Shown: positions 7,802 through 12,322, counted from the stretch's first letter. The stretch: 35,043 nucleotides of DNA from Candidatus Aerophobota bacterium (GCA_021163155.1 JAGGXI010000075.1:1-35043), one strand, 5' to 3'. Program-made: numbers and translations. Notes: generated by a model from the letters alone, not told the origin.

Positions 7802-8743
7802 ATTAAAATTCTCGGAGCCGAGTCTTTAGGCGTGCGTGGCCTCAGTTGTGTGGTAAAAATGAAGGATCATACCATAGTTATTGATCCCGGTGTAGCATTG
7901 GGCTACCAACGTTACGGATTGCTTCCTCACCCAGTTCAAATAGCGGTTGGCGAAGAGATCCGCCGAGCAATTATGGTAACACTAAAAGATGCTACCGATA
8001 TAGTAATTAGCCATTTCCATGGTGATCACGTTCCGCTTGTTGATGCTAATCCGTACCAACTTAAAGCGCAGAAAGTAGCAGGATTATGTCAAAAGCCTCG
8101 ATTATGGGCTAAAGGTCCTGAAGGGCTTTCTTATAATATGAGGTGCAGGATAAGAGATTTAGGCCATGTATTAAATAGAGTTTTACCAAATGCAGAGAGG
8201 CAATCCGAGGGACCAATGGAATTCTCCGGGCCAATGCCTCATGGAAAACCACGTACCCAATTTGGCACAGTAATGATGACCCGCATTAAAGATGGAGACG
8301 ATGTGTTTGTACATGCCTCAGATATCCAACTTCTTAATAGCAAGGCCGTATCACAAATACTAAATTGGTATCCCAGTATAGTATTAGCTGGCGGACCACC
8401 TATATATCTTTCGTGGATGTCATATAGAGAACAAAAGAGTGCATGGAATAATGCATTACAACTGGCTAAAGGAGTAAACACGCTAATCCTTGACCATCAT
8501 CTACTACGTTGTGAAGAAGGACTTTCCTGGTTAAACCGTCTTTCATCTAGGTCGGGACATAGGGTAATTTGTGCTGCAGACTTTATGAAACGTCCACGTT
8601 GTTTACTTGAAGCCCGCCGACGTCAATTATATAGGGAAATGCCAGTTCCTGATAAGTGGCATGAAAACTATGCACACAATAATGCCAATACTCAAAAATA
8701 TCGGGATTATGCAAGAAAGAGATATAAATGGTTCAACTATTAA
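7802..8743 (+). CDS. Metallo-beta-lactamase-fold hydrolase, COG2248/UPF0282-like
   Basis: A metal-dependent hydrolase-fold protein of unknown substrate. HFHGDHVPL is the zinc-binding H-x-H-x-D-H motif, further His/Asp ligands appear as HASDIQ and LILDHHLL, and the early IDPGVALGYQRYGLPHP-like stretch is typical of the UPF0282 group. The first conventional start (GTG 7832) would cut off LGAESLGVRG, which belongs to the family N-terminus (…SLGVRSM). The frame stays open upstream and GGGGGAAG lies 10 bases before ATT 7802, so an ATT start giving about 313 residues is preferred. It follows rdgB-coaE by 21 bases and ends just before the repeat island. Confidence 0.75.
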   Translation: MKILGAESLGVRGLSCVVKMKDHTIVIDPGVALGYQRYGLLPHPVQIAVGEEIRRAIMVTLKDATDIVISHFHGDHVPLVDANPYQLKAQKVAGLCQKPRLWAKGPEGLSYNMRCRIRDLGHVLNRVLPNAERQSEGPMEFSGPMPHGKPRTQFGTVMMTRIKDGDDVFVHASDIQLLNSKAVSQILNWYPSIVLAGGPPIYLSWMSYREQKSAWNNALQLAKGVNTLILDHHLLRCEEGLSWLNRLSSRSGHRVICAADFMKRPRCLLEARRRQLYREMPVPDKWHENYAHNNANTQKYRDYARKRYKWFNY

Positions 8744-8745
8744 AT

Positions 8746-8776
8746 GGGGTCAGGTCTCAACATTTGACATTTCACG
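8746..8776 (+). repeat. Island repeat copy A (31-bp terminal sequence)
   Basis: Begins GGGGTCAGGTCTCAACATTT and continues GACATTTCACG. It lies three bases after the upstream gene's stop. The same 31 bp recurs inverted at 9393-9423 (28 of 31 identical), direct at 9950-9980 (30 of 31) and degenerate near 11664. Sequences of this type are often found near REP-associated tyrosine (RAYT) transposases; that link is from memory and no such transposase is in the window. Confidence 0.8.
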
Positions 8777-8838
8777 AACCCCCTCCAAATTCCTAAAATG
8801 AAGAAAACACTAAGAAAGCCGAATAAGGAGCTAAAATA

Positions 8839-9027
8839 ATGAGTAAAATAAAAATTGAGGTTGGCCTTGAGGAGTTAAAGAAGGCTATCTCCGAGCTTTC
8901 CGATGATGAGAAAGAAGAGCTATTCTTTGAGCTTAACCCTGCCTGGGGAAAGGCTCTTAAAAAGATGGAAAAAGAAGTTCTTCAGGAAGATGAGGAAGGA
9001 AAGACTATCAGCTTAGAGGATATCTAA
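8839..9027 (+). CDS. Putative antitoxin of a type II toxin-antitoxin pair
   Basis: A 62-residue acidic helical protein (KIEVGLEELKKAISELSDDEKEELFFELNP...). No DNA-binding motif is evident, but its size, charge, position one base before a RelE/ParE-like toxin and a good AAGGAG site before the ATG all fit the antitoxin role. In such modules the antitoxin wraps and neutralises the toxin and often represses the operon. The acidic C-terminus (LQEDEEGKTISLEDI) resembles the toxin-binding tail of short antitoxins. The function is inferred from the partner. Confidence 0.65.
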   Translation: MSKIKIEVGLEELKKAISELSDDEKEELFFELNPAWGKALKKMEKEVLQEDEEGKTISLEDI

Positions 9028-9028
9028 G

Positions 9029-9319
9029 TTGAGCTACGAGATAAAGTTAGGAACAAGAGCTACAAGTCAATTAAAGAAGCTGGATCTTCATATAAAAGAG
9101 ATAGTTAAAAGAAAATTGAGGGACAATCTTACTTTGAATCCTCATAGATGTCCTCTTTTATCAGGTAAATACTCCAGTTTAAGAAGAATAGCCTTTTCTA
9201 CTCCTGGAGGAGAATACAGGGCAATTTATACTATCAGGGAAGATAAGAAAAGAGTCGTTGTTCTTTTTGTAGGAGCCAGAGAGAATTTTTATAAAGAGTT
9301 TGAAAGGTATTTAAGTTAA
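9029..9319 (+). CDS. RelE/ParE-superfamily toxin
   Basis: A 96-residue basic protein starting at TTG 9029, one base after the antitoxin stop. It opens with SYEIKLGTRATSQLKKLD, has the helical stretch IVKRKLRDNLTLNPH, then the beta-sheet core YSSLRRIAFSTPGGEYRAIYTIREDKKRVVVLFVGARENFYKEFERY: Arg-Arg, E-Y-R-A-I-Y and V-V-x-L-F-V-G-x-R-x-x-F-Y match the RelE/ParE fold. RelE proteins cut mRNA in the ribosome and ParE proteins poison gyrase; which one applies here is unknown. The pair sits between oppositely oriented copies of the island repeat. Confidence 0.85.
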   Translation: MSYEIKLGTRATSQLKKLDLHIKEIVKRKLRDNLTLNPHRCPLLSGKYSSLRRIAFSTPGGEYRAIYTIREDKKRVVVLFVGARENFYKEFERYLS

Positions 9320-9348
9320 AATAGCTTAATTTCACATATAACGAGAGA

Positions 9349-9423
9349 GTTCAAGCCTCAATAGAGAATTTAACTGCAGCATGACATAACAGAGTAAAAT
9401 GTTAAATGTTGAGACCTGACCCC
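9349..9423 (-). repeat. Island repeat copy B, inverted, apparently a full short element
   Basis: The right 31 bp (9393-9423) are the reverse complement of copy A with three changes. To its left, AATTTAACTGCAGCATGACA resembles the internal part of copy C (AATTTAAATATAGCATGGTA), and GTTCAAGCCTCAAT at 9349-9362 looks like a decayed left end (compare GGTCAGGCCTCAAC). Copy B therefore looks like a roughly 75-bp MITE-like unit with two opposed ends. Confidence 0.65.
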
Positions 9424-9461
9424 AATTATATACTATAAGAAAAAGTGAGAAAGGGAAAATT

Positions 9462-9728
9462 ATGCCATTATTAAGCCGAAAAGAAGTTTTAAATCTAAAA
9501 CTTAGTAGCATTCCTTCATCACAGTTAAGGATATTTGCTTCAATCTTGGGGATTTTAGATAAAGGTCCGGTTCCAAAGATTATCAAAAAGATATTGGAAG
9601 AGCCAATAGATGAGAAAATAATTGATGAGTTCATAAGGCAAAAATATAGAGAGAAAACTCAAAAAAGGACAACAAGAGTAAAATCGCCGCAATGGCTAAT
9701 AAAGAGGAAACACAAACATGAAGATTAA
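9462..9728 (+). CDS. Hypothetical protein, 88 residues
   Basis: Not recognised. It is helical and increasingly basic toward the C-terminus, ending KSPQWLIKRKHKHED. AGAAAGGGA precedes the ATG at a plausible distance. It lies in the island between repeat copies B and C, downstream of the toxin-antitoxin pair, so it may be cargo. No signal peptide or membrane segment is visible. Coding status is moderate: codon use resembles its neighbours and no competing frame is better. Confidence 0.45.
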   Translation: MPLLSRKEVLNLKLSSIPSSQLRIFASILGILDKGPVPKIIKKILEEPIDEKIIDEFIRQKYREKTQKRTTRVKSPQWLIKRKHKHED

Positions 9729-9736
9729 CTTGAAGA

Positions 9737-9934
9737 GTGATTTGGAGCAATTGTTTTTCTGACTTTGAATGGAAGATAAAGGGTATGATTGATAAAGATG
9801 ATAATATATATCCTATTCCTCCAATACAGCGAGTTATAACAGGAATCTTTCAAGAGATAGCCAAACATAAGATTAAGAAGTTCATGAAAGAAAAATACAG
9901 ATGCGAGATAATCGAAGGAGGACCAAGAGAATGA
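9737..9934 (+). CDS. Hypothetical small protein
   Basis: Not recognised. The frame is open from GTG 9737 (65 residues), but the first dozen residues (IWSNCFSDFEW) look unlike the rest. A start at ATG 9785, after AAAGGG, would give 49 residues beginning MIDKDDNIYPIPPIQRV. The C-terminal half, FQEIAKHKIKKFMKEKYRCEIIEGG, is a basic helix and resembles in style the C-terminus of the preceding ORF (DEFIRQKYREK). It may be a decayed relative or partner. It ends 15 bases before repeat copy C. Confidence 0.35.
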   Translation: MIWSNCFSDFEWKIKGMIDKDDNIYPIPPIQRVITGIFQEIAKHKIKKFMKEKYRCEIIEGGPRE

Positions 9935-9949
9935 ACAAAACAAACAAGA

Positions 9950-10039
9950 GGGGTCAGGCCTCAACATTTGACATTTCACGGGTTAGGAAATTTAAATATA
10001 GCATGGTATAATACAGAGAAAAAGAGAGCCCGACCGACC
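9950..10039 (+). repeat. Island repeat copy C, direct, with internal promoter-like sequence
   Basis: The first 31 bp (9950-9980) match copy A at 30 of 31 positions. The internal part, AATTTAAATATAGCATGGTA, resembles copy B, and GAGAGCCCGACC at 10024-10035 looks like a decayed right end. A TATAAT at 10007-10012, preceded by TGG, could act as an extended -10 for the glycosylase gene downstream. Coordinates of the right edge are approximate. Confidence 0.65.
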
Positions 10040-10074
10040 ACTATGCATATATAAAGACAAAGAGGAATAAACAA

Positions 10075-11337
10075 ATGAAATACGGTAAAGATTATAATTA
10101 CGATTGGGCTAATGTTAAGAAAATACTTGAGATGAAAGCCGGTGATGCACTTTCCAAAGGTATGGCTATCAAGATATACGAAGATGAAAGTGAAGAAATA
10201 TTTGGAAAATCTATATCTCGAGCTATGCCGGGAAAATGCATTTTAGAAAATGATGATAAACCCGGTGAGATAACTCCTACAATTCCTCGTCATTTAGGCG
10301 AATTGGGATATTCCAATCGGGTGGGGACAGAAAAAGGAAAGAAATACGTGCTTATTTGGAAACCTCATTATAAAAAAATTGGAAAGAGCACTGATGGAGA
10401 GAGAAAAGAAGCTTTAGAAAGCTCTAAAAAGAAAAAATTCTTCAAAAATAAAACATCAGAGAGATATTATAAGAGGGAGCAAGAAGTAAATTTCGTTAGA
10501 ATAAAAGCAATAGCGGATGTTTTTGCTTCTCTTGAATGGGAGGGAATTATTAAGTTTGATTTAAAGGAACCAGAATACTTATGTTTTTACAAATTGAAAC
10601 CGAAGGCAGATTTTACTCATCTCTGCCTTATGGCAATATGTGCGGGAATTATAGATTATCAATTAGCTGGAGATGCTTATCTTTTTTGGAGGACATTAAG
10701 AGATGTTGCCTCCAAATATGATAAATTCCAAGATATAGATACAGTTAAACAAATAATCTATAAATTTTTAGATTGCTCAGTAAATGCGAGATTAAACAGC
10801 CAGAAAAGATATTGTTTGGATCGGATATTTTCTTCTTCTTTTCCTCAAAAAATAATTGGTGATTCCGAATTTTTAAGACAAAAACCATACTCACTGTGGC
10901 AACAGCTGTCTGAAGTAACAAATAGAAAAATGGATATGAAAACGGTGGTTATGGCAATGAAAGTTTTTGATCTTGTGCATTTACTTTATTATGAAAATTA
11001 TGCAAATTTTCCGGAAGACATCCCTATACCTGTGGATATTCACATAAAAAGAATGTCGTATATTTCAGGAATAGTGGAAGACGAAGAGATAAGTAACAAT
11101 ATTATAAGATTTGCTTGGGGGAAAGTTTGCAAAAGAGTGTCGAATACATTAGATAAAACAATTACTTCCTTTAGGATCGATAGTTCAGTTTGGCAGATTG
11201 GGAAGTTAGCTTCTCAAAGTAACTGGAGATTGAAAACTGTGTTAGATTACTTAAATCATGAGATACAGATTAACAAAGATAAAGCAGAAAAACTTGCCAA
11301 AGAGTTTTTATGGAGGAGGCTAATAAAAAGGGGTTAA
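10075..11337 (+). CDS. AgoG-like N-glycosylase/DNA lyase with N-terminal extension
   Basis: A 420-residue protein. Residues about 140-400 resemble AgoG, the archaeal 8-oxoguanine DNA glycosylase of the HhH-GPD superfamily. The catalytic Lys of KTVVMAMK is K289 and the Asp of DIPIPVD is D321, 32 residues apart as in Pyrobaculum AgoG (K140/D172). A later D-x3-W (D369, W373 in RIDSSVW) matches AgoG residues that contact the base. AgoG itself is about 256 residues, so residues 1-140 are extra; they include a possible small domain (IPRHLGELGY...KYVLIW) and a Lys-rich linker. Likely role: excision of a damaged or modified base followed by strand cleavage. Substrate unknown. It sits in the repeat island and runs straight into a small frameshifted gene. 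Confidence 0.75.
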   Translation: MKYGKDYNYDWANVKKILEMKAGDALSKGMAIKIYEDESEEIFGKSISRAMPGKCILENDDKPGEITPTIPRHLGELGYSNRVGTEKGKKYVLIWKPHYKKIGKSTDGERKEALESSKKKKFFKNKTSERYYKREQEVNFVRIKAIADVFASLEWEGIIKFDLKEPEYLCFYKLKPKADFTHLCLMAICAGIIDYQLAGDAYLFWRTLRDVASKYDKFQDIDTVKQIIYKFLDCSVNARLNSQKRYCLDRIFSSSFPQKIIGDSEFLRQKPYSLWQQLSEVTNRKMDMKTVVMAMKVFDLVHLLYYENYANFPEDIPIPVDIHIKRMSYISGIVEDEEISNNIIRFAWGKVCKRVSNTLDKTITSFRIDSSVWQIGKLASQSNWRLKTVLDYLNHEIQINKDKAEKLAKEFLWRRLIKRG

Positions 11338-11340
11338 AAA

Positions 11341-11635
11341 ATGTTGGATCAGTACCTTTCGAAGAATTTCAAGAAAAATAGCGATGGATTGTATGAAGTC
11401 TATAATAGATTTTCTTTTGATAATATTTTTAAGACTGCTTTTAAATAATGATTTCGAATACGAAGATGCTTTAAGTTTTATTTTATGCAATTGTGCTTTA
11501 AGCACTTTAGTATTTCAAGAAAGAATTTATAATAAGTATTATCTGGGCATTGATCCTGTTGATACATTATCTCCAGACTTAGTAAAGTTGAGAAATTACT
11601 ATCTTCTTAAGATTATACGAAAGAGGCAAAAATAG
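11341..11635 (+). pseudogene. Small gene with a +1 frameshift, downstream of the glycosylase
   Basis: An ATG at 11341, three bases after the glycosylase stop and preceded by AAAAGGGG, opens a 35-codon frame (MLDQYLSKNFKKNSDGLYEV...NIFKTAFK) that stops at 11446-11448. The +1 frame then continues without a break to 11635 (NDFEYEDALSFILCN...LKIIRKRQK). Skipping one base at the TTTAAAT run would give a single protein of about 97 residues. The product is not recognised. The shift could be a mutation, an assembly error or programmed; the good ribosome site and the intact downstream frame suggest recent or no decay. Confidence 0.5.
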
Positions 11636-11663
11636 TGTATAATTCTGCAAACAACAGAAGCAA

Positions 11664-11692
11664 GAGGACTCAATCCTTAACATTTGGCATTT
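11664..11692 (+). repeat. Island repeat copy D, degenerate
   Basis: GACTCAATCCTTAACATTTG followed by GCATTT aligns with the 27-bp core of copies A-C at roughly 20 positions. It lies at the right edge of the accessory island, between the frameshifted gene and the secreted-protein gene. Being so diverged it could be an old copy or chance. Confidence 0.4.
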
Positions 11693-11755
11693 TTTCTACT
11701 TATTATATTATAAAATTATCTTTAATTAATGAAAAGCTGAAAAGAGGTGACAAAA

Positions 11756-12322
11756 GTGAGAAAAAGAGGCTTGTTGATTAAAGCGGTAATATTGAGTGTC
11801 TTATTGGCAATTTTGACCAATACAGGTGCAGTTGCTTCTCAAACAAAACGTATTATAACTGCTACGGGTGAGGGGATAATTCTTAATTATAATGAGGAGA
11901 TTTATTGGAGTGAGGAACAATTTGATCAAGAATATGAGAAATATTCTGAAAATAAGGCAAAATATCTGGAGAATTTTGTAGAAAATTTTTCAAATACATT
12001 TTTGAAATCTAATCTTAAAGCTGATGGTTGGAGTGTATCTTTTGAATCTCGATATAGCTTGAAAGATAAGAAAACCGTATATTTAACTTCAATTCAATGC
12101 AAAATAGATGGAGCGGCCACTGGGACAGCAAAAAGTCCTTATTTTAGAACTGAATGGTTGCTAATACCTATTTTAGGGAGAGGAGTTGACCTTCTCAGCT
12201 TTAACTATTTAACAGATAAAATAATTGTTTACAAAGGTGAGATTAACCATACTCCAATAAAAATTACTTTTAAGTTTTCAAAGCCTGTAAGCCATTGCCA
12301 CTACCATATCTGGTATAAATAA
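11756..12322 (+). CDS. Secreted protein of unknown function
   Basis: About 188 residues with a clear Sec signal peptide: basic VRKRG, hydrophobic LLIKAVILSVLLAILTNTG, then AVAS|Q as a likely cleavage site. No lipobox Cys is present. The mature part is a mixed beta-rich protein with Trp/Tyr-rich segments (EEIYWSEEQFDQEYEKYSENK) and no family I recognise. GTG 11756 is preferred over GTG 11747, because AAGAGG at 11742-11747 is then correctly spaced as ribosome site. It is the first gene after the accessory island and lies 63 bases before polX. Confidence 0.7.
   Translation: MRKRGLLIKAVILSVLLAILTNTGAVASQTKRIITATGEGIILNYNEEIYWSEEQFDQEYEKYSENKAKYLENFVENFSNTFLKSNLKADGWSVSFESRYSLKDKKTVYLTSIQCKIDGAATGTAKSPYFRTEWLLIPILGRGVDLLSFNYLTDKIIVYKGEINHTPIKITFKFSKPVSHCHYHIWYK

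What the first reader, a model, noticed from the sequence alone, without database searches (positions are those of the whole stretch)
8746..11692. Accessory island built from small cargo genes separated by copies of one 31-bp sequence
Copies A (direct), B (inverted), C (direct) and a decayed D divide the region into a toxin-antitoxin cassette, a two-ORF cassette and a glycosylase cassette. A and B are inverted around the toxin-antitoxin pair with 28 of 31 identity, so that 678-bp segment looks like a compound mobile unit. B and C also share internal sequence, which suggests a parent MITE of about 75-90 bp. No transposase is in the window, so movement would have to be in trans, perhaps by a RAYT-like enzyme.
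Basis: partly seen in the sequence, partly recalled or inferred. Interest (0 to 1): 0.62.

Follow-up and report, generated by a model that had tools for sequence, protein, structure and literature searches.

The report
Scattered ends of a small jumping gene
The repeated 31-base sequence is the end piece of a known kind of small bacterial jumping gene (a tyrosine transposase element and its gene-less mini-copies), several of which landed and decayed in one spot; the toxin-antitoxin and DNA-repair genes between them are most likely neighbours, not cargo.

Summary
The repeats are real. A (8746+), B (9423-) and C (9950+) match at 28-30 of 31 bases, against zero expected by chance; D (11666+) is weak. 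The conserved core is 25 bp, GGGGTCAGGTCTCAACATTTGACAT. It occurs 20 times in this genome (an Aerophobetes-type bacterium, by its relatives) and exactly in 86 stretches of public genomes labelled with about a dozen phyla. It is the terminal inverted repeat (TIR) of ~1-kb elements encoding a Y1 tyrosine transposase with a DnaA-like C-terminal domain: the "TIRtron/TIRYT" class of Di Nocera 2013, subclass 2.1 of Quentin 2018. Most other pairs are gene-less 45-185-bp mini-elements. B and C are themselves ~80-bp mini-elements, each with one eroded end; A is a single end.

The cargo reading does not. Of 61 inward-facing public pairs, 50 are mini-elements, 11 carry the transposase, none carries another gene. 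Toxin and glycosylase homologues lack the repeats; a like pair elsewhere brackets tmRNA. Three copies in 1.2 kb is improbable at random (p about 0.001), so a hotspot is likely. No target duplications in 43 mini-elements, as expected of single-strand transposition. No intact cognate transposase remains here.

The parts
8746..8776 (+). Copy A: single TIRtron end (25-bp core 8746-8770 plus 6 bp shared with C); no recognisable second end
   Evidence: 25/25 to consensus; no inverted partner within 400 bp better than background
9344..9423 (-). Copy B: whole ~80-bp mini-element; intact end 9399-9423, eroded end about 9344-9365
   Evidence: 24/25 end; interior matches C (p=0.001); folds with its eroded partner end; aligned with C and the 83-bp MITE
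9950..10037 (+). Copy C: whole ~85-bp mini-element; intact end 9950-9974, eroded end about 10015-10037
   Evidence: 24/25 end; interior matches the genome's 83-bp MITE (p<0.001)
11666..11690 (+). Copy D: possible strongly decayed end (18/25)
   Evidence: p about 0.005-0.013 in a 3-kb stretch; weak
8839..9027 (+). Antitoxin-like ORF (62 aa), partner of the ParE-like toxin
   Evidence: no convincing family match; conserved next to the toxin homologue in L196, L197, L198 at 61-71% identity
9029..9319 (+). ParE/RelE-type toxin (96 aa)
   Evidence: PF15781 E 4e-9, PF05016 E 1.9e-6
9462..9728 (+). 88-aa ORF of unknown function, found in no other of 61 genomes
9737..9934 (+). 65-aa ORF, possible remnant of an EcoRV-type restriction enzyme N-terminus
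   Evidence: PF09233 E 0.002, below cut-off
10075..11337 (+). AGOG-family 8-oxoguanine glycosylase/lyase with an extra ~140-aa N-terminal part
   Evidence: PF09171 E 6e-23
11384..11635 (+). 83-aa ORF of unknown function
7832..8743 (+). Upstream neighbour: metallo-beta-lactamase-fold protein ending 3 bp before copy A

Best explanation
The repeat is the terminal inverted repeat of a TIRtron: a ~1-kb element whose only gene is a Y1 (HUH) tyrosine transposase of the TIRYT type (RAYT subclass 2.1, with a DnaA-like HTH C-terminus). Gene-less derivatives of 45-185 bp with two such ends (MITEs) are moved in trans by that enzyme, most likely as single-stranded DNA folded through its inverted ends. B and C are two such MITEs that inserted separately and then eroded at one end each. 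A is a single surviving end and D possibly another. The toxin-antitoxin pair, the two small ORFs and the glycosylase are genes that happen to sit between the insertions; they are not carried by them. Shown: identity of the repeat with transposase-element ends, MITE forms, absence of target duplications, absence of cargo in other pairs. Inferred: movement in trans, the single-strand intermediate, and that the cluster marks a tolerant or preferred site.
For: Inverted copies frame Y1 transposase genes at ~1-1.2 kb spacing in the own genome (C22:1000-2042, frameshifted; C18, two decayed) and in G030, G037, G055 and 11 public loci. Genome-specific variants of the repeat match the variant at that genome's own transposase ends (GTGTCAGG in G037, GGGTCTGG in G030). 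50 inward pairs of 45-185 bp without genes; an 83-bp MITE in the own genome with perfect 24-bp arms, z=-10.2 as folded ssDNA. B and C share interior sequence with it or with each other. No target duplication of 3-8 bp in 43 MITEs. Pfam: Y1_Tnp + Bac_DnaA_C. The TIR begins GGGGTCAG, fitting the published TIRYT consensus GGGGWSAS (PMC3733652; PMC6006769).
Against: Three copies within 1.2 kb is improbable for independent random insertions (p about 0.0005-0.0016), so some non-random process is needed. A has no detectable second end, and 28 of 108 exact copies in public hits also lack a partner, which simple MITE decay does not readily explain. No intact TIRYT gene was found in this 93%-complete assembly.
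Confidence: 0.88

Rival explanations
1. The A-B segment is a compound mobile unit: two TIRtron ends in inverted orientation carry the toxin-antitoxin pair as cargo, mobilised in trans.
For: A and B are inward-facing with 28/31 identity, 678 bp apart; copies cluster more than chance; a second non-transposase pair in the genome brackets a transporter-like gene (C34:49321-50591).
Against: 0 of 61 inward pairs in public hits hold non-transposase cargo; the same toxin-antitoxin pair in G002, G003 and G008 lacks the repeats; a like pair in G030 brackets tmRNA, a core gene; B is a complete element in itself.
Confidence: 0.07
2. The repeats belong to a DDE transposon family (ordinary TIRs with target duplications), and the link with Y1 transposases is incidental.
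For: Long perfect inverted ends look like DDE transposon TIRs; one complete DDE insertion sequence is in the window.
Against: The DDE element has unrelated ends, TA(g/a)CCCTACTTCCACA; no 3-8-bp target duplication in 43 MITEs; Y1 genes are framed by the repeat in several genomes with matching variants.
Confidence: 0.02
3. The repeat is a host regulatory element or integron-type attachment site separating gene cassettes.
For: Spacing of small genes by one repeat resembles a cassette array.
Against: Copies occur in both orientations, mostly as 45-185-bp inverted pairs without genes, they frame transposases, and no integrase among the window ORFs scanned nor any Rfam family was found.
Confidence: 0.02

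Closest known systems
TIRtrons / TIRYT elements (Di Nocera 2013, PMC3733652)
   Same: Y1 tyrosine transposase gene framed by long TIRs starting GGGGWSAS; dispersed single, dimeric and grouped TIR copies in the same genome.
   Different: This exact 25-bp TIR, the Aerophobetes host group and the exact identity across contigs labelled with about a dozen phyla do not appear in the text of that paper (its figures are not held); a full-text search for GGGTCAGGTCT returned only unrelated titles.
TnpAY1 subclass 2.1 (Quentin 2018, PMC6006769)
   Same: NHYH and YIHLNP motifs, DnaA-like C-terminal HTH; that paper suggests subclass 2.1 = TIRYT and asks for confirmation.
   Different: They found no REP-like repeats beside subclass 2.1 genes; here the repeat is plainly at the ends.
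REPINs / REPtrons (RAYT with GTAG REPs)
   Same: Small non-autonomous inverted pairs tied to a Y1 transposase, plus singlets.
   Different: No GTAG foot; ends are 25-bp terminal repeats, and the transposase gene itself lies between them.
Mobile insertion cassettes (MICs)
   Same: Would be the name for transposon ends around non-transposase cargo.
   Different: No second example of this cargo, and no cargo in any of 61 public pairs; not supported.

Membership tests
TIRtron / TIRYT (TnpAY1 subclass 2.1) | Y1_Tnp (HUH + Tyr) transposase between the repeats | tested here: met
   PF01797 in framed genes, NHYH and YIHLNP present; in the own genome only broken copies
TIRtron / TIRYT (TnpAY1 subclass 2.1) | C-terminal HTH of Bac_DnaA_C type | tested here: met
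   E 8.5e-11 and 2.1e-9 in two of three full-length proteins; E 1.6e-4 (below cut-off) in the own broken gene
TIRtron / TIRYT (TnpAY1 subclass 2.1) | TIRs with GGGGWSAS consensus | tested here: met
   GGGGTCAG
TIRtron / TIRYT (TnpAY1 subclass 2.1) | Dispersed TIR copies, single and paired | tested here: met
TIRtron / TIRYT (TnpAY1 subclass 2.1) | Enzyme cleaves and joins the TIR as ssDNA | not testable with these tools
   no experiment
REPIN / REPtron (GTAG type) | GT[AG]G tetranucleotide at the foot of a hairpin | tested here: not met
   no GTAG or GTGG in the 25-bp end
Mobile insertion cassette / compound transposon | Same cargo between the same ends at another site, or absent as a unit in a relative | tested here: not met
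   toxin and glycosylase homologues lack the ends; no cargo in 61 public pairs; the within-species empty site could not be tested
DDE transposon MITE | Target site duplication | tested here: not met
   43 MITEs, 3-8 bp duplications at expectation

The most novel reading that the evidence does not exclude
The locus is a landing site where TIRYT enzymes repeatedly act on pre-existing ends, so that copies accumulate and the toxin-antitoxin segment between A and B can move as a single-stranded compound element: the first cargo-bearing TIRtron.
Probability: 0.06. Interest if true: 0.6.

Novelty: new member of a known kind. Interest (0 to 1): 0.3.

Why it matters
It names a 25-bp repeat, ties it to a transposase class whose repeats were in doubt (subclass 2.1), and gives ready test substrates (perfect 57- and 83-bp MITEs) for whether TIRYT enzymes mobilise their ends in trans. 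It also warns that inverted pairs of such ends around accessory genes are not by themselves evidence of cargo.

Tried and rejected
Compound cargo unit (rejected on pair statistics and homologue flanks). Integron-like cassettes (no recombinase seen, mixed orientation). DDE origin. Promoter carried by the repeat: sigma-70 scan no better than shuffles (7 found, 4.7 expected). RNA element: no Rfam match. Empty site of the whole island: the lactamase-fold gene has a 68%-identical homologue in G002 but with different neighbours, so no clean empty site; a decayed copy (17/24) lies 40 bp downstream of it. A literature search for RAYT plus toxin-antitoxin plus MITE found nothing.

Full report
The observation. 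A is 8746-8776 on +, B 9393-9423 on -, C 9950-9980 on +, with 28/31 (A:B) and 30/31 (A:C) identity. Shuffles of the window gave no such match. The fourth, D at 11666 on +, matches 18 of 25; that has p about 0.005-0.013 in a 3-kb stretch and is weak. The conserved unit is 25 bp, GGGGTCAGGTCTCAACATTTGACAT; beyond it the copies go their own way, except that A and C agree for six more bases.

What the repeat is. The own genome (1.83 Mb, 119 contigs, 93% complete) holds 20 copies at up to 3 mismatches, against none of the reversed control. Searching the same genome for Y1 transposases (PF01797) gave three places. Two of them are framed by this repeat: C22, where inverted copies at 1000 and 2042 enclose a transposase gene now split by a frameshift, and C18, where 3117 (+, exact) and 3527 (-) enclose a decayed transposase with two stops; beside it 4258/4457 enclose a second remnant. 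The third (C26) has other repeats. The same arrangement, inverted ends about 1.0-1.2 kb apart around a 304-335-aa transposase, recurs in G030, G037 and G055 and in 11 public loci, a few of these shorter or decayed. In each genome the variant of the repeat at the transposase ends is the variant scattered through that genome (GTGTCAGG in G037, GGGTCTGG in G030). That co-variation is the strongest evidence that the enzyme and the repeat belong together. In several elements the right end even supplies the last codons and stop of the gene: its reverse complement reads M-S-N-V-E-T-stop, and L122, L145, L151 and L192 end in SNVET.

The mini-elements. Of inward-facing pairs closer than 3 kb in the 86 public stretches, 50 are 45-185 bp long with modes near 57-61 and 80-83 bp and no gene, and 11 hold the transposase; none holds anything else. 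The own genome has one 83-bp mini-element with perfect arms (C50:4214-4296; ssDNA fold z = -10.2). The interiors of B and C are related to each other in the expected orientation (p = 0.001), and C's to the 83-bp element (p < 0.001 in 1000 shuffles). B still pairs with its eroded far end when folded, though not better than many shuffles. So B and C are whole mini-elements of about 80-88 bp, each with one good end and one eroded end. A is a single end: nothing beyond its 31 bp resembles the others.

How it moves. In 43 paired mini-elements, flanking duplications of 3-8 bp are no commoner than chance. DDE transposons normally leave such duplications; the single-strand cut-and-join of IS200/IS605-type Y1 enzymes does not (established knowledge; PMC8266576, for the strand-specific ssDNA mechanism). 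One species pair shows an approximate empty site for a 59-bp element (L133 with, L150 without), though the flanks are too diverged to fix the cut points. Movement in trans is inferred. No intact cognate transposase is left in this assembly, so the copies here may be fossils.

Is the toxin-antitoxin pair cargo? The evidence says no. Homologues of the toxin were found in 33 of 337 genomes; outside this window none of the fetched loci has a good copy of the repeat beside it (one has a 6-mismatch copy, L205), including G002, G003 and G008 where the two-gene pair is conserved at 50-71% identity. The glycosylase homologue of G006 (57-59% identity) also lacks the repeat. An inward pair 794 bp apart in G030 brackets tmRNA, a core gene. 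In the own genome a further inward pair brackets a transporter-like gene (EamA-type by eye; not tested by profile).

What remains odd. Three copies within 1.2 kb has p about 0.0005-0.0016 under random placement of 17 insertions. Published TIR families also occur in clusters (PMC3733652). Two orthologous-site comparisons show a different mini-element family where one genome has this one (L126 versus L115, with TIR GGGGTCAAATCTTTATTCTTGACAA; L122 versus L145, with GGGACACATCC), and one element is nested in another (L120). This hints that such sites are re-used, which would account for clusters without any cargo; two cases do not prove it. Also, 28 of 108 exact copies in public hits have no partner at all while most others have a near-perfect one. 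Some of these are truncated transposase elements, but others look like true singlets, like A.

Placement among known systems. Di Nocera et al. (PMC3733652) described 'TIRtrons', Y1 transposase genes framed by TIRs, many sharing GGGGWSAS, with families of dispersed TIRs; GGGGTCAG fits. Quentin et al. (PMC6006769) suggested that their subclass 2.1 (DnaA-like C-terminus, NH[YF]H, Y[IV]HLNP, no REP found) is this TIRYT group and asked for confirmation; the framed proteins here show Y1_Tnp and, in two of three full-length proteins tested, Bac_DnaA_C. The finding is therefore a new member of a known kind.

Limits. Breadth across phyla rests partly on metagenome bins, and some look mis-binned: L155 (labelled Spirochaetes) is 97% identical over 2.2 kb to L170 (Atribacteria), and L150 (Actinomycetota) is 81% identical over 1.65 kb to L133 (Atribacteria). 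The whole-genome searches, with up to 43 copies in unrelated genomes that have their own matching transposases, do not depend on single contigs. Partner detection without gaps misses ends with deletions (L126 is one). The host name is inferred: same-order genomes share contig coordinates with records titled Candidatus Aerophobetes.

Noticed in passing
   Followed up: partly
window 10075-11337: AGOG-family 8-oxoguanine glycosylase (a family known chiefly from archaea, from memory) with an extra ~140-aa N-terminal part; only one close homologue in 337 genomes (G006).
   Followed up: partly
window 9737-9934: Possible remnant of an EcoRV-like restriction enzyme (PF09233, E 0.002) next to an orphan 88-aa ORF.
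   Followed up: partly
L126:6200-6420 versus L115:20-250; L122:3420-3600 versus L145:6140-6340: Orthologous intergenic sites carry mini-elements with different TIR families, as if the site had been re-used or the ends replaced.
   Followed up: partly
L109-L194: Exact copies split sharply into those with a near-perfect inverted partner and those with none (28 of 108), suggesting a class of true single ends.
   Followed up: partly
L122, L145, L151, L192: The right TIR encodes the C-terminus and stop codon of the transposase (MSNVET-stop), so the repeat is partly constrained as coding sequence.
   Followed up: partly
L071:4005-5434: In distant genome G037 a homologue of the 191-aa protein at window 11747-12322 lies directly upstream of the lactamase-fold gene, so these two genes are associated in both genomes but in opposite order.
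   Followed up: no
L155/L170 and L150/L133: Contigs labelled Spirochaetes and Actinomycetota are closely similar to Atribacteria contigs: likely mis-binned public genomes.
   Followed up: no
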